A stretch of DNA of 41,206 nt, from the NCBI GenBank assembly GCA_040752815.1, contig JBFMGC010000014.1, forward strand, positions 22,245 through 63,450, in the 5' to 3' direction. The first letter of the stretch is position 1. Each line of letters begins with the position of its first letter. Shown here piece by piece: positions 2,460 to 23,553 of this stretch. The stretch is from Candidatus Zixiibacteriota bacterium. GTDB taxonomy: Bacteria; Zixibacteria; MSB-5A5; GN15; FEB-12. The position numbers and the translations under genes are program-made. A model generated the notes under the pieces. The model was not told the DNA's origin. It was given only the letters and a program-made list of their open reading frames with translations, and did not search any database.

Positions 2460-4613
2460 TCATCGGCAGGGCGGGCTGGCCTGCCCGTACAGATAGTTCA
2501 TGTAGTAAATAACGTCCGCAATGTTCACGATGTTGTCGCAATTGCAGTCGGCACGGGCAGCGCCGCCGCTGGGCGAACTGCCGTTGCGCGTGATGAAGTC
2601 AATCAGCAGGAGCAGGTCAGACACGGTGGCGCTGCGGTCACCGTTATAGTCCCCGGCTACGTAGACCGCCGCGCAGTTGTGCTCGTACAGCAGGGCAAAC
2701 GGCCCCAGGTTGTTATCTGAATCATGGCCGATTCCCCGCAGATAGTGGTAGGTGAGGTCAGTTATGCCCTGACTCGGCCAATTTACCGACCAGCCGTCCT
2801 GTCCGTTGAAGTCGACTCCGACCATGGTGCGGGTCACGCTCCAGGCCGAGGCCAAAATAGAAACCATGATGTCGACGCGGTGCCAGCTCCCCTGGATGTT
2901 CAGTTCGCTGTAGCCGTATCGATCCCGCCACAAACAGCTCTGCACAGTTCCCGAAATGGGGTTGGCCACGCTCACGAAATAGGTGGAGTCAGGCCGCAAA
3001 AAGCCAACGAAACCGTCAACCGTAACCCACAGCCCGGGGTTGTTGCCCAGCCCGAGCAATACTACCCGCTCCTCGTCCTCGACCCAGATGCGAAGGTCGG
3101 CATAACTCGGATCACGCTTGTAGTCAAATCTGAATCCGCCGCCTCTGCCGGCAGCATAACTGGTCAGACCGGCCGGCACCGCCTCGTCGTATGTGCCCAG
3201 GAACTGGCGGGTGCGGAACTCCGCGGCGATAGCCTCGGCCACCTGCTGCTGGGTCATCGGATTCCCACCCTGGCGAACGAGCGCCGGATGCCCCCGACTG
3301 TTCCACACAAAAGCCGCGACCGTCGCCGCCACCGGAGCCGAATAGAAATCACCGAACTCGCCGTTGGAGGCGTGATTTCCGTCGGTGAGAATGCCGTTAA
3401 CATCGCCGACAGTTGCCTGGTTCATTGCCGTAACATTGAGAGTGTATACGTTGGCAGCCTGCCGTCGTTGGACTTCGACAAAAGTCATGTTCTCATCGCT
3501 GATGCTCATATTGATGTTGAGCGGCGTGCACATCGGGTATCCCGGGGTCGGGGCAACGATCGTTGCGGTCGGCGGGGTCGGCTCGAGGTAGACTGTGATT
3601 GTAGTCGATGTTGATGCACCCGCCGTATCAACAATCGTCACTCGGAGACTGTAGCTGCCTTCCGGCAGCGACGAAAAATCCCACGGCACACTGAAGCCGT
3701 TGCCGCTGACGGCTGGATTGACGCCGTCACGGAGCGGCGAGACCCCGTCGAAATCCCGCCCGATTTCTACAAACGGGCCGCCGTTGGAATACTCAAACAT
3801 CACGTATTCCACCTGGCCGGTTTGGGCGCGATCCCAGGCCCAAAGCTCCTTGCTGCCGTAGAGAACGGCGCCATTAATAGGAGACACGATTTCCAGAACC
3901 GGCGAAACCCCGGAACCGCCTCCAGGAATACCGGCAACCTCCATTGCGAGGCGACCCGGGAAGGCCCAGGCGCCGCCCCAGTTGGCGCTGTCGCAGAGAT
4001 CAACAAATCCGATAGTGTCGTCCCAGATATTGTAAGTGGCGCACAAGGCGGGGACACTGTCGGTCAGCACTGACGGATTGACGGACGCGGCAAAGGTGTT
4101 GCCAATGTAGAACCCCGCGAAGAAGGGGCCGTTGACGACCAGGGGCGTGTCCAGCGGAACCCAGATATTATAGAAGCCTGCCGAGGGAACCTCCGTGTCC
4201 CAGGTTGTTGACACAGCCAGCAGGATACCGGGAACCGGGCAGCCGGGGAACGTGGTTGAATCTACCGCCTCGACATCGACTCCAATGGTGAGCGGAGTCG
4301 GCGCATCGAACATCATCGGCATGTTGATCGCTGTTATGGTAAACGGGTACGGACCCTCGCACTGGTGGGCCGGATTCATGAGTGATTTGTACAGTTCCTG
4401 TCCGGTAACCCAACCGTTGATCCGCCACATGAGTACCTGATTATCGGAGACGAAACAGGTATCGGCGGCGGCCAGCGACGGCGCCAGGAAGATATCGCTC
4501 TTCGGCACGTCGGAGATCCGTTCCACGCGAACGGCCTGTTTGTTCGCAGCAAGGCCGGCTGATCCCATTGCCAGAGTCACCAGCCAGGCAAGCGCGGCTG
4601 TCCTAAAAGACAT
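2460..4613 (-). CDS. Secreted multidomain protein ending in a dockerin type I repeat
   Basis: 717 aa with a clear signal peptide (residues 1-22, cleavage near 'GLAAN'). The N-terminal half is a beta-rich region. At about residues 235-345 there is an Ig-like/Big-type domain ('VLEIVSPINGAVLYG', then 'GSYSLRVTIVDTAG') and a second starts at about 348 ('PTATIVAPTPG'). The central part contains 'GGFRFDYKRDPSYADL', of unknown function. The last 64 residues (654-717) are a dockerin: two calcium-loop segments, 'GDYNGDRSATVSDLLLLIDF' and 'ADCNCDNIVNIADVIYYMNY', each followed by a helix. Dockerins bind cohesins, or serve as calcium-stabilised C-terminal modules in non-cellulosomal bacteria. A good Shine-Dalgarno (AAGGAG) lies 7 nt before the ATG. 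Convergent with the gene ending at 2285 and divergent from the HD-GYP gene. Confidence 0.75.
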   Translation of the reverse strand: MSFRTAALAWLVTLAMGSAGLAANKQAVRVERISDVPKSDIFLAPSLAAADTCFVSDNQVLMWRINGWVTGQELYKSLMNPAHQCEGPYPFTITAINMPMMFDAPTPLTIGVDVEAVDSTTFPGCPVPGILLAVSTTWDTEVPSAGFYNIWVPLDTPLVVNGPFFAGFYIGNTFAASVNPSVLTDSVPALCATYNIWDDTIGFVDLCDSANWGGAWAFPGRLAMEVAGIPGGGSGVSPVLEIVSPINGAVLYGSKELWAWDRAQTGQVEYVMFEYSNGGPFVEIGRDFDGVSPLRDGVNPAVSGNGFSVPWDFSSLPEGSYSLRVTIVDTAGASTSTTITVYLEPTPPTATIVAPTPGYPMCTPLNINMSISDENMTFVEVQRRQAANVYTLNVTAMNQATVGDVNGILTDGNHASNGEFGDFYSAPVAATVAAFVWNSRGHPALVRQGGNPMTQQQVAEAIAAEFRTRQFLGTYDEAVPAGLTSYAAGRGGGFRFDYKRDPSYADLRIWVEDEERVVLLGLGNNPGLWVTVDGFVGFLRPDSTYFVSVANPISGTVQSCLWRDRYGYSELNIQGSWHRVDIMVSILASAWSVTRTMVGVDFNGQDGWSVNWPSQGITDLTYHYLRGIGHDSDNNLGPFALLYEHNCAAVYVAGDYNGDRSATVSDLLLLIDFITRNGSSPSGGAARADCNCDNIVNIADVIYYMNYLYGQASPPCR

Positions 4614-4913: not shown

Positions 4914-6431
4914 ATGGCTCGGGATCGCAGAAGTCGAATACTTGTCGTCGATGATGAAGAGTACATCTGCAAGCTCATTGTCGAGTCCTTAGGCCCGGCT
5001 AATTACGATATTGTTACGTTTCACGAGGCCGCCAGGGCAATTGAACATCTGGCGGCTAACCCGGTCGACCTGGTGCTGACCGACTTAATGATGGGTCGAA
5101 GCTCCGGGATAAAGGTGCTCGAAGCGGCGCTGGAAAACCATCCCGACGCCATCGTCGTCCTCATGACCGCCCACCCGACAGTGGAAACGGCTATCGCAGT
5201 GCTCAAGCGCGGTGCCCACGATTTCCTAGTCAAGCCATTCAAGCTGGAAATGCTCAATCAGGTTGTCGAGCGCGGCCTGGCACATCAGAAGATATTCCGC
5301 GACAACCTGTCACTCAAGGGTCAAGTTGAGTTCCTGCGCGTAGCGAACGCCTTTTTCGGCTCCGGAATGGAGTTCGGCCAGTATCTTGAACTGCTCCTGA
5401 AGTCCTGCAACACCGAACTCTCGGCCGCGGCGTCGGCAATTCTGGAAATCGACCCCCGTTCCAGGGAAATCGTGCGCCGAGTCGCGGCGGCCGGTGATCC
5501 CGGCGACGAGCCTGCGGTCCTCGACACGCGACTGCTCGACCAGTTCAGCGGCAGCCGCAACGCCAATCCGGTAGTGAGCTCAGAACCGGTGATGGTCGAG
5601 AATAACTGCCGCTATCGAATCCTGATCAGCCAGCCGATCATGGTGCGCCGGACACTGCACGGGGTAATCAATGCGCTCATCCTCTCGCGGCAGGAAAGCG
5701 TGCCGTCGGGACGGCTCGACGCTCTTGCGCTTCTGGCCTCATCGGCGGCTTCGGCCATTGCCAACCAGAAGCTCTACGAAGATCTGCAGCAGTCGTATTT
5801 TCAGGCGATTCGGGCGTTGACCAACGCCATCGAAGCGCGAGACCATTGCACGGCGGGTCACACCGACCGGGTCACCCGCCTGGCCGAACAGGTGGCGCTC
5901 CGGCTGGGCTGGACGGAGAAACAGCTTCACAATCTGCGGATCGGCTGCACGCTGCACGACATCGGCAAGATCGGGGTGCCCGACGCCATCCTGAACAAGA
6001 CCGGCATTCTTACCGATGCCGAGCGCAAACGCATGATGAAACACCCCGAAGTTGGACTTAAGATCATCCGCGGGATTGAGCTGTTCCGGCCTTCGATACC
6101 GTATATCATTGCCCACCACGAACGGTACGACGGCCATGGATACCCGCGCGGTCTCCAAGGGGGGGAGATTCCGATCGAGGGGCGTCTGCTGTCTGTGGTG
6201 GACACATTCGACGCGGTCATGTCTGACCGGCCATATCGGGTAGGGGCGTCACTGCGCAAGGCCGTGGGAGAGCTGACCCGGCACGCCGGAACACAGTTTG
6301 ACCCGGACCTGGTGAGAGTTTTCCTCGACGTGCTTCGGTCCGGTTCCGTTGATCTGAAGGAAATGTACGGCCGAAAAGAAGACCTCAGTTGCCTCGAGAC
6401 GATCGGTGCTACCGAAAAGGCACGGGCGTAA
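4914..6431 (+). CDS. Response regulator with HD-GYP output domain
   Basis: 505 aa. Residues 8-125 form a CheY-like receiver: D13/D14 acidic pair, phospho-acceptor D57 in 'LVLTDLMMG', T85 and K107 ('LVKPF'). Residues about 135-290 look GAF-like and lack strong motifs. Residues 295-480 are an HD-GYP domain with H316 ('HTDRV'), the H348-D349 pair ('LHDIGKIGVPD'), H378 and 'HHERYDGHGYP' at 401-411, so the metal site and the GYP signature are intact. HD-GYP proteins hydrolyse cyclic di-GMP, so it probably lowers c-di-GMP when phosphorylated by an unlinked histidine kinase; none is encoded here. Shine-Dalgarno AAAGGACA precedes ATG. Its last 23 bp overlap antisense with the end of the convergent site-2 protease gene. 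Confidence 0.93.
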   Translation: MARDRRSRILVVDDEEYICKLIVESLGPANYDIVTFHEAARAIEHLAANPVDLVLTDLMMGRSSGIKVLEAALENHPDAIVVLMTAHPTVETAIAVLKRGAHDFLVKPFKLEMLNQVVERGLAHQKIFRDNLSLKGQVEFLRVANAFFGSGMEFGQYLELLLKSCNTELSAAASAILEIDPRSREIVRRVAAAGDPGDEPAVLDTRLLDQFSGSRNANPVVSSEPVMVENNCRYRILISQPIMVRRTLHGVINALILSRQESVPSGRLDALALLASSAASAIANQKLYEDLQQSYFQAIRALTNAIEARDHCTAGHTDRVTRLAEQVALRLGWTEKQLHNLRIGCTLHDIGKIGVPDAILNKTGILTDAERKRMMKHPEVGLKIIRGIELFRPSIPYIIAHHERYDGHGYPRGLQGGEIPIEGRLLSVVDTFDAVMSDRPYRVGASLRKAVGELTRHAGTQFDPDLVRVFLDVLRSGSVDLKEMYGRKEDLSCLETIGATEKARA

Positions 6432-7506
6432 ACGACAGCAGCAGAATCACCAGCGATACCAGCCCGGTCACCATCGCGGCCAGTGACACCGGGCGGCGAT
6501 CATCCAATGTCGGTGGATGACCCACACCGAAAGCGAAACCGATCGCCGCAAATACCCACCAGGTCGCCGACTGAAAACCCAGCGCCACAAGAATTCCCAG
6601 CGCAATCCAACCGAACAGCACCTGCCTTCGCCCCGCGAGACCGTAGATGACATGGCCACCGTCGAACTGGCCGATTGGCAGCATGTTCATTGCGGTGATC
6701 AGCAGGCCGACCCAGCCGGCGAATGCTGCCTCGGAGAACAGATAGAGCGATCCTGGCGGCGACGGGCCGATCAAAACCGGCACCAGGGTCTTTACGAGAA
6801 TGGATTCCCCGTCGAGAGAAAAGGCCAGCCCCGCGTACGGCAGCATGTCGCTCGGTGTAACGACCGAATGACTCAGCCCATATACCAGCCAGCCGAGCGC
6901 CACGATCCAGCCGGCTATCGGTCCGGCCGCGCCGACTTCGATTAAATCGCGCCGACTCCAAAAGGGCGACTTGGACCTGATAACCGCGCCGAAGGTCCCG
7001 ATAAAATTGGGTGCGGGAATGAAGTACGGCCACGACGTGACAATTCCGCGTCGGCGGCTGGCCAGGAAATGGCCCATCTCATGAACGAAGAGGATCGATA
7101 TCAGAGCGGCGGTGAACTCGAGGCCGCGCCCCGCCGCCAGATCGTCAAGCGTGGCCGCAACGGCCAGGCGCAGGGTGGGGGCGTTCAGGTTAACCCAAAA
7201 AACCGGGATGAAATAGACCGAGAGCAGGGTCACTACGAACAACACGATGTTTAGTGTCGGTACGCGCAGCTTGCGCTCGGGATTAACCGATAGCAGCAAC
7301 GAGTCTTCGTGGGTGCTGAGGGTGTAGCGATACCCGGCCGAAGTAAGCCGATCCTTCAGCAATGGGATAGCCTTATTAGGATCGAACCGGTGGCTAAGGC
7401 TCAGGACGATTTGGTTGCCGTGCAGGTAGTGGGCATCCACCTGGAACAGGTCGGCCACCAGAGTGGTCAGCTCGTCGGCTCTCTTCTCGAGCGTGGTGCT
7501 GTCCAT
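6409..7506 (-). CDS. Site-2 protease family (M50) membrane metalloprotease
   Basis: 365 aa. The soluble N-terminal part (1-80) is followed by several membrane segments. HEMGH at 142-146 gives the zinc ligands and catalytic Glu. The second motif 'NMLPIGQFDGGH' (274-285) supplies the third ligand, D282. Both are hallmarks of M50 intramembrane proteases. The arrangement, with an N-terminal domain and no PDZ insert, resembles the EGY1-like and archaeal group rather than RseP. The substrate is unknown; an anti-sigma factor is one known type of S2P target, but nothing here ties it to the ECF pair at 15.8 kb. The gene ends inside the convergent HD-GYP gene. Confidence 0.88.
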   Translation of the reverse strand: MDSTTLEKRADELTTLVADLFQVDAHYLHGNQIVLSLSHRFDPNKAIPLLKDRLTSAGYRYTLSTHEDSLLLSVNPERKLRVPTLNIVLFVVTLLSVYFIPVFWVNLNAPTLRLAVAATLDDLAAGRGLEFTAALISILFVHEMGHFLASRRRGIVTSWPYFIPAPNFIGTFGAVIRSKSPFWSRRDLIEVGAAGPIAGWIVALGWLVYGLSHSVVTPSDMLPYAGLAFSLDGESILVKTLVPVLIGPSPPGSLYLFSEAAFAGWVGLLITAMNMLPIGQFDGGHVIYGLAGRRQVLFGWIALGILVALGFQSATWWVFAAIGFAFGVGHPPTLDDRRPVSLAAMVTGLVSLVILLLSFTPVPFR

Positions 7507-7686
7507 GCTGCATTATACGCCGGAACTGATCAAGGAACAAAGGGAGAGATTGGCGGGCGGTTAGAAACAGGCAAAGGGGTCATTAGCAATCGTCGGGCCG
7601 CGGCTCTACAGGTTGGAGCTTTAGGACGACGAAACGCCGTCTATTCATAAGTGGCTCCACCTGGTTGATCCACCCACTGCAGCTCG

Positions 7687-8340
7687 CTAAGTGCCACCTG
7701 AAATGGTCATGAAGGTCATATCGTGCAAAGCGATTGCAAGCCCGACGACTATGCCCACTGGTATGCCGATCAGCAGAAATGTCCGAGTGTAACTGAACCG
7801 TTTTTCTTTGGTCCAGCTCGCAGTGATATCAGAGGTCGGGATAACTATGCTGCGGCCGTCAGCGGAAAGCCCTGTCACACTTTGGCCACCTTCTGTGAAT
7901 CGGCCACTGCGCTTCACAAACTCGATTCGCTGACCGGCAGGCTCCACCGTGTCCGTGTAGACCACCCCCGACTCGCCGTTTTTCCGGGTGAAGGCTTGTG
8001 GGCTGATCTCAGTGATCGTTTCACCCGGAGGATAACTCTGGTAAATCATAGCCGATTTGACCTCGCGCAAATTCAGTTGAACTGGATGGCCGTTCGTAGC
8101 CCGACCGACAAACGTGCCGCTCTGGGCCTCGAATCGTCCCCCGCTACTGTCCAATTGGAGCCAACTACGATCGGTCTTCTGAAGTGAGGCAATCTGAAGG
8201 TGCAAATCGACATGGCTGATTGCCACCGAATCTTGGGGCAGCCGAGCCTCCTCTGTTCGGATGGTCGCGGTATAGGAGCAGCCTATGATAGAGTTGACCA
8301 GGGCAACTACCAGAGTCCATATCAGAGCGTTCCTAAGCAT
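7687..8340 (-). CDS. Putative lipoprotein with C-terminal membrane segment
   Basis: 217 aa. A short hydrophobic N-terminus ends in 'SIIGC' with C21, a plausible lipobox. The middle is a beta-rich region with no family that I recognise. A strongly hydrophobic segment near residues 187-205 ('FLLIGIPVGIVVGLAIAL') may be a second membrane anchor. Shine-Dalgarno AAGGAG lies about 10 nt upstream of ATG. Function unknown. The 180 bp between this gene and the site-2 protease start hold nothing recognisable. Confidence 0.6.
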   Translation of the reverse strand: MLRNALIWTLVVALVNSIIGCSYTATIRTEEARLPQDSVAISHVDLHLQIASLQKTDRSWLQLDSSGGRFEAQSGTFVGRATNGHPVQLNLREVKSAMIYQSYPPGETITEISPQAFTRKNGESGVVYTDTVEPAGQRIEFVKRSGRFTEGGQSVTGLSADGRSIVIPTSDITASWTKEKRFSYTRTFLLIGIPVGIVVGLAIALHDMTFMTISGGT

Positions 8341-8549: not shown

Positions 8550-9587
8550 CTAATACCCGATCGGAAACCGCGGGTCGAAACGAAGGTGATCCAGCCAGTA
8601 CTCCACCCCCCGGTTCTCTATCAGGTGCTTCACCCGACGGTACCCGTCTCCGTAGACCGGGTCGTGTTCCTCTTCCATTTGGCGCATGACATACCCGGCC
8701 ATGTCGTCGTTGAGCCGGTCGAGAACGAGCGACGAGGCGTAATTGCAGCTGCCTTCGACAAACGTATCGTCGTGCTCCTCGGGCGCATTCACGAACAACC
8801 AGGCGTGCATCAGCTCGTGGGCGGCGGTGGAGATGAAATGCATGCGCGGGAGACCGGTGAGGATATAGACCGTCAACTCGCGGTCCTCAAAAAAGCCCCA
8901 GAAGTTGCTCTTGTCCTGCCGGGTCAGTCCAAGTTGATGGGTGACGGGGCGCCCGAGCAGCTTTGCAAACTGCGCTCGCGTGACCAGTTTGAATTCAACC
9001 TCGTCCATGTCGACGACGATTCCGTGCTCGGCCAGGAGTTTGCCGATTCGATCCAGTTCGTGTCGGCCTTCGTCTTCGTCCGTCACCGCGCTTTTCTCGC
9101 AGCGGGAACAGATATACTGCGCCGGTCCGAACGGGTGGCCGCCGCCGGCCAGGGGATCGGACAGGAAACGGCCGCAAAAGGTGCAGCCGTGCTCTTCTTC
9201 TTCGTGGTATTTGTGGTACCGGTTGCCCCAGTGATCGATCAGGTACTGGCCTTCGATGATCTCGCCGCAGCGGTTGCACCTGATAGCCACGTTCCGGTCA
9301 AAGCACTCCGGGTGGTAGTTACGGCCCTCGTACACGACCCAGTTTTCGCCGACCGGACTGCCACAATAGGCGCACTGCGGCAGGACATGGTCGTAATAGC
9401 ACTCGCGGTGGTAGACCCGGTTTTCGAATGTAATGTACTGGCAGCCGAGGGCCTCCCCGCAGTAGAAGCAGATCATTTCGGAAGCAAACGGCGCTGGAAG
9501 GAGAGTGCCCAGGCATACGCAGAGCCAGACAGTGGCCCGCGCAAAGCCCAGTGATTTGACGTGATTTCCTGTCATAAACAGACCCAT
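8550..9587 (-). CDS. Secreted LIM-domain, DA1-like zinc metallopeptidase
   Basis: 345 aa. Residues about 10-36 form a signal peptide. Three LIM-type zinc half-sites follow in the order C-x2-C, H-x2-C: C40/C43/H60/C63, C72/C75/H92/C95, and C104/C107 with H125/H128. Further CxxC pairs lie at C135/C138 and C160/C163. The C-terminal half carries HELMH at 257-261 and a downstream Glu at 278 ('FVEGS'), matching the gluzincin arrangement of the DA1-like peptidase family (plant DA1 is a ubiquitin-activated peptidase with LIM domains). The predicted location is outside the cytoplasm, so its substrate must differ from that of plant DA1; this is inference. M1 or M5 could be the start and no strong Shine-Dalgarno decides. 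Convergent to nothing; divergent from the lipoprotein at 9695. Confidence 0.8.
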   Translation of the reverse strand: MGLFMTGNHVKSLGFARATVWLCVCLGTLLPAPFASEMICFYCGEALGCQYITFENRVYHRECYYDHVLPQCAYCGSPVGENWVVYEGRNYHPECFDRNVAIRCNRCGEIIEGQYLIDHWGNRYHKYHEEEEHGCTFCGRFLSDPLAGGGHPFGPAQYICSRCEKSAVTDEDEGRHELDRIGKLLAEHGIVVDMDEVEFKLVTRAQFAKLLGRPVTHQLGLTRQDKSNFWGFFEDRELTVYILTGLPRMHFISTAAHELMHAWLFVNAPEEHDDTFVEGSCNYASSLVLDRLNDDMAGYVMRQMEEEHDPVYGDGYRRVKHLIENRGVEYWLDHLRFDPRFPIGY

Positions 9588-20658: not shown

Positions 20659-23553
20659 ATGAAGCACTTCGCCCTTTTGGCGGCATGCGGCCTGCTGCTT
20701 GTGGCCGGTTCGGTTTTCGCGCAGGATGTGGCGAAGGTGAATCGCCCCGCGAATGTACCTTCGTTTGTCGGCTATGTCCCGGATGAGTTCATAGTCGTGC
20801 TTCGGTCGGACATAGGCAAGCTCAATACCCGGCCGGCAGCCAACGGTGTGATCGAAACCGGCATGTCCGATCTCGACGCACTGTCACACCGCTTTGCCGT
20901 TTCCAATTTCACCAAGCAGTTCCCCGGCAGCAACGAGGCACTGGTCTCGCTGACGCGCAATCTCGCCCGGTACTACAAGGTCAAATTCGAGTCGGGGACT
21001 CTCGATGACGCTATGGCGGCGTACCGCCAACACCCGCTGATCGACCATGTCGAGCCGATCGGCATTCACACCGTGTACGCCACGCCTAACGACGGATTCT
21101 ACGGCGATCAATGGCACCTGACACAGGCTAACGATCACGATGTCGATGCCCCGGAGGCGTGGGATCTGGAGACCGGCGACCCCGCGATCATTGTCGCCAT
21201 TTTAGACACGGGCGTGCGGTACTATCATAAAGACCTGGGTGGGTCGAATGCCTCGTCGACCAATCCGACCGCCGCCGACGGAAACATGTGGATCAACTGG
21301 ACCGAGAAGAACGGTGCGGCCGGTGTCGACGATGACGGCAACGGGTACGTTGATGACTGGGTCGGCTACGACTGGGTAGACGGCGCCACGCCGTGCTGGT
21401 CGGGCGAGGACTGCAACACCGCTGACAACGACCCGCGCGATTTCAACGGCCACGGCACGCACTGTGCGGGCAATGTGTCCGCGATTACGAACAATGGATA
21501 CGCCACGGCGGCCGTCAGCGGAGGCTGGGGCAACGGCACGCTCCAACCGACCGGAAACGGGGTCAAGACCATGGCTTGCCGTATCGGCTGGTCGGGTACT
21601 TACATTATCTGGGAAGTCGGGTATGTCCGGATGGATTTTGCCGCCTCGGCATTCTATTACGCCGCCAACAACGGTGCCCGGATTGCCTCCTGTAGTTGGG
21701 GTTCATCGAACTCCGGCGGTATCGACGCCGCGGTAACCTACTTCATCAACAGCGGTGGTCTGGTTTTCCATGCGGCGGGGAACGACGGCTCGCAGACGGC
21801 CGACTATCTGGGCGGCCGCACCGATGTCATCAATGTCGCCGCCACCGACAGCCTGGACTGCAAGGCGGACTTCTCGACCTACGGTACGTGGGTGGATATT
21901 TCCGCTCCCGGTACCGGTATTATGAGCCTGTATCACGATCATTCCGACCCGGCGAGCGATTATGTAGCGATGATGGACGGTACCTCGATGGCCACGCCGA
22001 TTTCGGCGAGTGTGGCCGGGCTGATATGGTCGCGGCACCCCGATTGGACAGCCGCGCAGGTGCGCGATCGCCTGTATGCCACCGCTGACAACATCTACGG
22101 CCTGGGGTGCAACAGCAGCTATGCCGGAAAGCTTGGTGCGGGGCGTGTCAACGCGTTTAACGCCGTGAATGACGGTCCAGTGTGTGACGTGATCGCCAAT
22201 TTCTCGGCAACCCCGACCAGCGGCTGCGCGCCGCTGGTAGTCAACTTTACTGATCTGTCCACTGGAACCGGGATCGATTCCTGGGCCTGGACATTCGGTG
22301 ACGGGGGCACATCCACAGCACAGAATCCGAGCTACACCTATACCACAGCCGGGACCTATACGGTCACGCTGACTGCCACGAGCAGCAGCCAGGGATGCTC
22401 TGACGGCGAGACCAAGACCGCATACATAACGGTATCGACGACGCCGGTGGCCAATTTCTCGGGATCACCGACGAGCGGGTATGCGCCGCTGACCGTCAAC
22501 TTCACCGATCTGTCGACCGGCGGCGCAACATCATGGAGCTGGGATTTCGGCGATTTGGGAACGTCGACCGCACAGAACCCTTCTCATGTCTATGCCTCAG
22601 CGGGGACGTACACCGTAACGCTGACGGCGAGCAATGCGTGCGGATCGGACGGCGAAACCAAAGTCGGCTATATCACCGTGTCCACACCACCCGCGCAGCA
22701 GTGTGACGATTTCAACGACGGCAACCTCACCGGCTGGGTCAATGCTCTCGGGACGTGGACCGCGACGGGTGGATACATGCGCGGCAATTCGAACACCACG
22801 AATGCGCGGATCACGTCGCCCTTCGGCTCGTTTACCACGGCGACTATTGACTGCGACGTGCGCATGAACTCGGGCCGCTCCCAGAGGAATGCGCGGATCA
22901 TCTTCGCTTACCGGGACGCCAGCAATTACCGGTTCGTACAGGGTGATGATGTCGGCAACACCTGGAAGATTTACAATCGTGCCGGCGGTTCCAACACGCA
23001 GGTGGCCTCCTGGGCGCGCACGATCACTACTGGTGTATGGTATCATGTGCAGGTGATTGAGGCCGCCGACGGCACGACCACTCTGAAAGTCGACGGGGTC
23101 ACTGTAGGCACCTACAAATTCGCCTCGGCGCTCGCCGGAGCGGTGGGCTGCGGGTTTACCAAGTCGGTATCTGATTTCGATAACTTCTGTGTGGGCGCGT
23201 CGGCCGGAGCTGCTGCCTTTACTGACGAAATCGCCGCCGAAACAGTGGCTCGGAGTCAAGACGGTATGATGCCGGCCGACTTCACGCTGGATCAGAATTA
23301 TCCTAACCCGTTTAACCCGGCCACGACTATCGGCTATTCGCTGTCGGTCCCTGTGCATGTGACACTGGAAGTTTATAATGTCATCGGGCAGCGTGTGCGT
23401 ACGCTTGTGGACCAGGCGCAGAGCCCCGGGCATTACGAAGTGGAGTGGAATTCGACCGATGAGGCCGGCAAACCGGTGGCCTCGGGAGTGTACTTCTATC
23501 GTCTGACGACTGACACACAGACGATGGCGAAGAAGATGCTTCTGCTCAAGTAA
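20659..23553 (+). CDS. Secreted subtilisin-family (S8) protease with PKD domains and C-terminal sorting domain
   Basis: 964 aa. Signal peptide 1-21; propeptide-like region about 35-140. The S8 catalytic domain (about 165-505) has the complete triad: D183 ('ILDTGV'), H265 ('NGHGTHCAG') and S443 ('GTSMATP'), plus the oxyanion N375 ('AAGND'). Two PKD domains follow (about 510-592 and 596-675; 'WAWTFGDGG' and 'WSWDFGDLG'). Next comes a LamG-like beta-sandwich (about 680-850). The last 90 residues begin with 'FTLDQNYPNPFNP' and end 'GVYFYRLTTDTQ...KKMLLLK', a FlgD-like/T9SS-type C-terminal sorting domain. So this is an exported, probably surface-anchored or released protease. Shine-Dalgarno AAAGGAG precedes ATG. 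No T9SS machinery is in the window. Confidence 0.92.
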   Translation: MKHFALLAACGLLLVAGSVFAQDVAKVNRPANVPSFVGYVPDEFIVVLRSDIGKLNTRPAANGVIETGMSDLDALSHRFAVSNFTKQFPGSNEALVSLTRNLARYYKVKFESGTLDDAMAAYRQHPLIDHVEPIGIHTVYATPNDGFYGDQWHLTQANDHDVDAPEAWDLETGDPAIIVAILDTGVRYYHKDLGGSNASSTNPTAADGNMWINWTEKNGAAGVDDDGNGYVDDWVGYDWVDGATPCWSGEDCNTADNDPRDFNGHGTHCAGNVSAITNNGYATAAVSGGWGNGTLQPTGNGVKTMACRIGWSGTYIIWEVGYVRMDFAASAFYYAANNGARIASCSWGSSNSGGIDAAVTYFINSGGLVFHAAGNDGSQTADYLGGRTDVINVAATDSLDCKADFSTYGTWVDISAPGTGIMSLYHDHSDPASDYVAMMDGTSMATPISASVAGLIWSRHPDWTAAQVRDRLYATADNIYGLGCNSSYAGKLGAGRVNAFNAVNDGPVCDVIANFSATPTSGCAPLVVNFTDLSTGTGIDSWAWTFGDGGTSTAQNPSYTYTTAGTYTVTLTATSSSQGCSDGETKTAYITVSTTPVANFSGSPTSGYAPLTVNFTDLSTGGATSWSWDFGDLGTSTAQNPSHVYASAGTYTVTLTASNACGSDGETKVGYITVSTPPAQQCDDFNDGNLTGWVNALGTWTATGGYMRGNSNTTNARITSPFGSFTTATIDCDVRMNSGRSQRNARIIFAYRDASNYRFVQGDDVGNTWKIYNRAGGSNTQVASWARTITTGVWYHVQVIEAADGTTTLKVDGVTVGTYKFASALAGAVGCGFTKSVSDFDNFCVGASAGAAAFTDEIAAETVARSQDGMMPADFTLDQNYPNPFNPATTIGYSLSVPVHVTLEVYNVIGQRVRTLVDQAQSPGHYEVEWNSTDEAGKPVASGVYFYRLTTDTQTMAKKMLLLK

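What the first reader, a model, noticed from the sequence alone, without database searches (positions are those of the whole stretch)
8550..9587. Secreted bacterial LIM-DA1 peptidase
LIM-type zinc domains are mostly eukaryotic, and DA1 peptidases are known from plants as ubiquitin-dependent growth regulators. Here three LIM-like half-sites precede an HELMH gluzincin domain behind a signal peptide. An extracytoplasmic location points to a substrate other than ubiquitin.
Basis: partly seen in the sequence, partly recalled or inferred. Interest (0 to 1): 0.6.

Follow-up and report, generated by a model that had tools for sequence, protein, structure and literature searches.

The report
Exported bacterial LIM-DA1 zinc peptidase
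A bacterium of the little-known phylum Zixibacteria encodes an apparently exported protein-cutting enzyme that joins LIM zinc fingers to the same kind of peptidase as the plant growth regulator DA1; bacterial relatives were already reported, but the export signal and catalytic residues are shown here to be conserved across many phyla.

Summary
Window 8550-9587 (-) encodes 345 residues: an N-terminal signal sequence, four (not three) LIM-type zinc sites in series, and a C-terminal peptidase matching Pfam DA1-like (E 4.9e-15, above cut-off). An AlphaFold2 model (pLDDT 89.8) shows four finger repeats and a gluzincin-like fold. HExxH, the third-ligand Glu and a Tyr-Gly pair are invariant in 66 relatives. 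The source is Candidatus Zixiibacteriota: 30 of 97 genomes of the phylum carry the gene, and relatives occur in Ignavibacteriota, Calditrichota, Marinimicrobia and others. Every Zixibacteria copy with a readable N-terminus (over 30) begins with a signal-like sequence; across phyla 6 of 66 copies lack one. No gene neighbour is widely conserved, and no plasmid or phage match was found. Best explanation: an exported zinc endopeptidase that processes or quality-controls envelope proteins, the LIM array serving as substrate-binding or regulatory arm, without ubiquitin input. Only architecture and conservation are shown; the mechanism is inferred. Bacterial LIM-DA1 proteins were already reported (Roseiflexus; Burroughs 2011, cited by Dong 2017), so this is a well-supported new member of a known kind, of moderate interest.

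The parts
8550..9587 (-). whole gene, 345 aa plus stop (alternative start at M5, 9573-9575)
9480..9587 (-). signal sequence or N-terminal membrane anchor, about residues 1-36
   Evidence: hydrophobic core in the window and in all readable Zixibacteria relatives; model helix 12-28; no dedicated signal-peptide predictor was available
9399..9470 (-). LIM-type zinc site 1, C40-C43-H60-C63; apparently a hybrid left by loss of one finger
   Evidence: hairpin 51-60 plus helix 61-68 in the model
9303..9374 (-). LIM-type zinc site 2, C72-C75-H92-C95
   Evidence: hairpin 84-91 plus helix 93-100
9204..9278 (-). LIM-type zinc site 3, C104-C107-H125-H128
   Evidence: hairpin 115-125 plus helix 128-131
9099..9185 (-). 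LIM-like zinc site 4, C135-C138-C160-C163, invariant in the 23 aligned proteins
   Evidence: hairpin 150-160 plus helix 161-165
8553..9098 (-). DA1-like gluzincin peptidase domain, residues 164-345
   Evidence: Pfam PF12315; domain model pLDDT 95.9; structural alignments to M1/M2/M3 peptidases, Z about 11
8805..8819 (-). HELMH zinc-binding motif, residues 257-261
   Evidence: H, E and H invariant in 66 sequences
8754..8756 (-). third zinc ligand E278, 16 residues between it and H261
   Evidence: invariant in 66 sequences; the same spacing in 60 of 67
8649..8654 (-). invariant Tyr-Gly pair Y312-G313, candidate transition-state tyrosine
   Evidence: invariant in 66 sequences; role inferred

Best explanation
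This is an exported zinc endopeptidase of the DA1 family. The signal sequence sends it through the Sec pathway to the periplasm or cell surface (strongly indicated, not shown). There the C-terminal gluzincin domain binds one catalytic zinc through H257, H261 and E278, with E258 as general base and Y312 perhaps stabilising the transition state (conservation shown, roles inferred from gluzincins). The four LIM-type fingers each hold one structural zinc and form an arm next to the active site that binds the substrate protein or gates access (inferred, by analogy with plant DA1, whose LIM-like part is needed for activity). Because the N-terminus carries an export signal where plant DA1 has ubiquitin-interacting motifs, activity must be controlled otherwise: by substrate presentation, by metal, or not at all. 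The likely task is limited processing or quality control of one or a few envelope proteins encoded elsewhere in the genome.
For: DA1-like and LIM matches in the window and in all aligned relatives. The family profile matches paxillin and PINCH LIM domains at E 9e-25 and 2e-19. The model has four finger repeats, and Foldseek places the finger half on PINCH, LHX3 and LMO2 LIM structures. The peptidase half aligns with M1, M2 and M3 gluzincins at Z 10-11 over about 150-190 residues, with a weak sequence match to M1 aminopeptidases around HExxH (E 0.008). HExxH, E278 and Y312-G313 are invariant in 66 sequences, so the family is kept for catalysis. A signal-like sequence stands in all readable Zixibacteria copies and most others. 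Conserved His among the finger ligands (H92 invariant, H60 and H128 nearly so) argues for zinc rather than disulphides. In plant DA1, C274Y in the LIM-like part abolishes peptidase activity (PMC5322733).
Against: No substrate, partner gene or phenotype is known, and the gene neighbourhood is not conserved, so processing of a specific envelope target is inference only. The window copy's signal sequence is the weakest of the set. The fold matches to gluzincins have middling Z, Foldseek alone gave no significant match for the domain, and sequence searches of the PDB showed no DA1 structure to compare with. A few cytoplasmic relatives exist.
Confidence: 0.7

Rival explanations
1. Membrane-anchored rather than released: the N-terminal hydrophobic segment stays uncleaved and tethers the peptidase to the outer face of the inner membrane, where it trims membrane or nascent exported proteins.
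For: Weak, non-canonical cleavage region in the window copy (PAPFAS before EMIC); a relative with an N-terminal transmembrane segment in RYN_339 (L116) and a probable lipoprotein relative in a spirochaete genome (L119). The abstract of the 2011 review, recalled and not readable here, speaks of membrane-associated peptidases.
Against: Many relatives have a typical small-x-small site just before the first finger, which fits cleavage.
Confidence: 0.3
2. A general digestive exoenzyme that degrades external protein for nutrition, with the LIM fingers as a mere stabilising scaffold.
For: Exported; scattered, single-copy occurrence without partner genes; the window also encodes a large exported subtilase with sorting domains.
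Against: LIM arrays are protein-binding modules and the finger ligands are kept over large distances, more than a digestive enzyme would need; no secretion-sorting C-terminal domain is present.
Confidence: 0.12
3. The fingers act as a zinc or redox sensor: loss of zinc or oxidation of the Cys ligands in the envelope switches the peptidase on or off.
For: Four to six Cys-rich sites in an extracytoplasmic protein; the number of fingers varies while the last ones are fixed.
Against: No direct evidence; His ligands are conserved as well, as expected for stable structural zinc.
Confidence: 0.12
4. A catalytically dead binding protein.
For: None found.
Against: All catalytic residues are invariant in 66 sequences.
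Confidence: 0.03

Closest known systems
Plant DA1/DAR peptidases (Pfam PF12315)
   Same: LIM and LIM-like fingers followed by a zinc peptidase with HExxH and a Glu about 16 residues on (HEMMHx15EE in plants; PMC5322733)
   Different: Plant DA1 works inside the cell, has ubiquitin-interacting motifs and is activated by ubiquitylation; here an export signal stands at the N-terminus and no UIM is detected
Bacterial LIM-DA1 proteins of Roseiflexus (Burroughs et al. 2011, cited in PMC5322733)
   Same: LIM-like CxxC/H pairs in a bacterial protein highly similar to the DA1-family C-terminal region
   Different: [quoted passage not shown] the window protein has eight ligand pairs and several relatives twelve. 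Whether the Roseiflexus proteins are exported was not tested here
M1 aminopeptidases and other gluzincins (M2, M3)
   Same: HExxH...E zinc site and similar catalytic fold
   Different: Much smaller catalytic domain, none of the other domains of those enzymes, and LIM fingers instead
Eukaryotic LIM proteins (paxillin, PINCH, LHX3, LMO2)
   Same: Zinc-finger sequence and fold of the N-terminal half
   Different: Evenly spaced single fingers rather than canonical two-finger LIM units in the window copy; fused to a peptidase; exported

Membership tests
DA1-like peptidase (PF12315) | match to the family profile above its curated cut-off | tested here: met
   55.9 bits against 25; 23 of 23 aligned proteins match
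DA1-like peptidase (PF12315) | HExxH with a downstream Glu as third zinc ligand | tested here: met
   H257, E258, H261 and E278 invariant in 66 sequences
DA1-like peptidase (PF12315) | LIM or LIM-like fingers directly before the peptidase | tested here: met
   four sites, the last ending at residue 163; LIM profile hits
Plant-type DA1 | N-terminal ubiquitin-interacting motifs | tested here: not met
   no UIM among Pfam matches up to E 10; the N-terminus is a signal sequence
Plant-type DA1 | activation by ubiquitylation | not testable with these tools
   biochemical property; improbable outside the cytoplasm
LIM domain (PF00412) | two fingers, CCHC plus CCC(C/H/D), joined by a two-residue linker | tested here: inconclusive
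   the window copy scores just over the cut-off (23.3 against 22.9) and has evenly spaced single fingers; relatives with more fingers keep a canonical first LIM, and the family profile matches LIM structures at 9e-25
Gluzincin (clan MA(E)) peptidase | catalytic fold of the clan | tested here: met
   VIA-align Z 10-11 to M1, M2 and M3 structures over 150-190 residues; Foldseek alone gave no match under 0.001 for the domain
Gluzincin (clan MA(E)) peptidase | zinc-dependent proteolysis | not testable with these tools
   needs an assay

The most novel reading that the evidence does not exclude
An exported branch of the DA1 family, spread over Zixibacteria, Ignavibacteriota, Calditrichota, Marinimicrobia and neighbours, in which an array of four to six or more LIM-type zinc sites works outside the cytoplasm as a substrate-binding or metal- or redox-gated regulator of an envelope peptidase: an undescribed kind of envelope proteolysis and a ubiquitin-free mode of action that may be older than that of plant DA1.
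Probability: 0.2. Interest if true: 0.65.

Novelty: new member of a known kind. Interest (0 to 1): 0.38.

Why it matters
It shows that the LIM-DA1 architecture exists in a form that can hardly depend on ubiquitin, so the LIM part must have a function separate from the ubiquitin system. A small bacterial homologue with a confident model would also be a practical route to a DA1 structure and to a test of how LIM fingers control this peptidase, an open point in plant growth control.

Tried and rejected
Single-sequence scan of genome contigs found no relatives; the alignment-based scan found 66 loci. Conserved gene neighbours: sought by all-against-all comparison of ORFs around some 70 loci; only local synteny within lineages (ArsR-type regulators with an ACR3-like transporter, a penicillin-binding-protein-like gene, MATE efflux, threonine synthase; recO-glyS near the window gene and in L032), nothing widely shared, so no operon partner. 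Mobile elements: no match in plasmids or phages; two viral-contig hits are short HExxH proteins without fingers. Defence: only a weak PADLOC hit, E 0.005, around HExxH, not pursued. Ubiquitin-conjugating enzyme in the own genome: none found, but the control rang nowhere either, so the result says nothing. LIM elsewhere in the own genome: no match at the genome-wide threshold, which also missed this gene's own weak LIM match. Viral fold library: no match under 0.001. The 2011 review on prokaryotic LIM domains is not held in the paper library, so what it says about export could not be checked. A direct comparison with plant DA1 sequences and a joint tree were not possible with the collections at hand.

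Full report
What is there. The reverse strand of 8550-9587 encodes 345 residues. Pfam gives DA1-like (PF12315) at E 4.9e-15 and LIM at its threshold. The cysteine and histidine pairs fall into four complete sites: 40/43/60/63, 72/75/92/95, 104/107/125/128 and 135/138/160/163. The peptidase follows at once, with HELMH at 257-261 and E278 after a 16-residue spacer.

Where it comes from. Relatives found by an alignment-based scan are mostly Candidatus Zixiibacteriota, then Ignavibacteriota, Calditrichota, Marinimicrobia, Bacteroidota, Eisenbacteria, Spirochaetota, Verrucomicrobiota and a cyanobacterial MAG, RYN_339. The window's nearest relative, L041 (the same contig as L045), at 41-42% identity, is a Zixibacteria MAG of the same family as the window's genome. 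In the phylum 30 of 97 genomes have a match, nearly always one gene; among spirochaetes 2 of 100, one of them the genome the survey was centred on.

Is it exported? In the aligned Zixibacteria proteins a hydrophobic stretch (12-residue Kyte-Doolittle mean 2.2-3.5) lies shortly before the first zinc Cys. Nine further stretches from Zixibacteria genomes were read and all begin likewise; several of these, and many genome-contig loci, repeat genomes already in the set, so the count of independent Zixibacteria copies is somewhat over 30. Across phyla, copies without a signal are three from spirochaetes, one Fusobacteria MAG, one Bacteroidales MAG and one RYN_339 copy. On a tree of 66 proteins the trait needs about three changes (quick tree with many open forks). 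As a control, 260 of 656 other ORFs in these loci reach the same hydrophobicity in their first 45 residues, against 58 of 67 DA1 proteins; the DA1 start codons were chosen with the hydrophobic stretch in view, so this comparison leans towards export and is support only. No trained signal-peptide predictor was at hand.

Anatomy. AlphaFold2 on the 23-row alignment gives pLDDT 89.8 and pTM 0.78, with four hairpin-plus-helix fingers and a mainly helical peptidase; the peptidase alone with 66 rows gives pLDDT 95.9. Foldseek places the finger half on PINCH, LHX3, TES and LMO2 LIM pairs, E down to 1.5e-5; the family profile finds paxillin LIM2/3 at 9.4e-25. The peptidase half aligns with oligoendopeptidase F, M1 aminopeptidases and ACE at Z 10-11, and by sequence weakly with M1 enzymes around the zinc motif (E 0.008). 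Foldseek itself had no significant match for the domain alone, so 'gluzincin fold' rests on the second aligner, the motif and Pfam together.

Finger number. Most exported relatives have four to seven CxxC pairs before the peptidase, and four Zixibacteria have eleven or twelve. The six-site pattern of L022 is a canonical LIM (CCHH-CCDC) followed by CCHC, CCHC, CCHH and CCCC sites. The window and L041 lack the stretch between the His of finger 1 and the last ligands of finger 2, about one finger's length and in frame, which leaves a hybrid first site (alignment). The later sites are the fixed ones: C75, H92, C95, C104, C107, C135, C138, C160 and C163 are invariant.

How it may work. Shown: architecture, conserved catalytic residues, conserved signal-like N-terminus. 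Inferred: zinc proteolysis, fingers as substrate arm or gate, envelope substrates. The best analogy is plant DA1, a latent endopeptidase whose LIM-like part is needed for activity (PMC5322733). In plants activation comes from ubiquitylation through UIMs; these are not detected here, and export would put the protein out of reach of any such system. The lack of widely conserved neighbours gives no hint of the substrate.

Against what is known. Bacterial proteins with LIM-like fingers and similarity to DA1-family proteins were described from Roseiflexus (Burroughs 2011, as cited by Dong 2017). From memory, the abstract of the 2011 paper also says that prokaryotic LIM domains partner membrane-associated peptidases; the text was not available. 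Searches of the paper library found no account of exported LIM-DA1 proteins in Zixibacteria or relatives, but most subscription journals are not held. The finding is thus a solid new member of a known kind; the exported, many-fingered form may deserve the name of a variant if the earlier work did not describe it.

Noticed in passing
L122, L123, L124, L129 (other families of the same class as the window's genome): DA1-type proteins with eleven or twelve CxxC pairs before the peptidase, HEIAHAW/HETTHAW-type motifs and a signal-like N-terminus: a second exported subtype with about double the number of Cys pairs.
   Followed up: partly
L119 1405-2298 (-) and L116 424-1389 (-): A copy from a spirochaete-survey genome with a probable lipoprotein signal and few fingers, and a RYN_339 copy with an N-terminal transmembrane segment and few fingers: membrane-anchored minimal forms.
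   Followed up: partly
window 6409-8340 (-): Downstream of the DA1 gene and on the same strand lie a 217-aa predicted lipoprotein (IIGC lipobox, 7687-8340) without any Pfam match and an M50 site-2-type protease (6409-7506). Neither is conserved near other DA1 genes.
   Followed up: partly
window 20659-23553 (+) and 2460-4613 (-): Large subtilase with PKD, FlgD-like and Por/CHU-type sorting domains, suggestive of type IX-like secretion; a 717-aa protein with dockerin and Ig-like domains.
   Followed up: no
PDB 3cmn: A Chloroflexus aurantiacus 'putative hydrolase with a novel fold' aligns with the DA1 peptidase domain at Z 10.6 over 164 of 298 residues; possibly an unrecognised structural relative.
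   Followed up: no
L038, L039, L044, L049, L057: DA1 genes lie near ArsR-type regulators and, in some, an ACR3-like transporter; possibly chance, since some of these loci are related.
   Followed up: no
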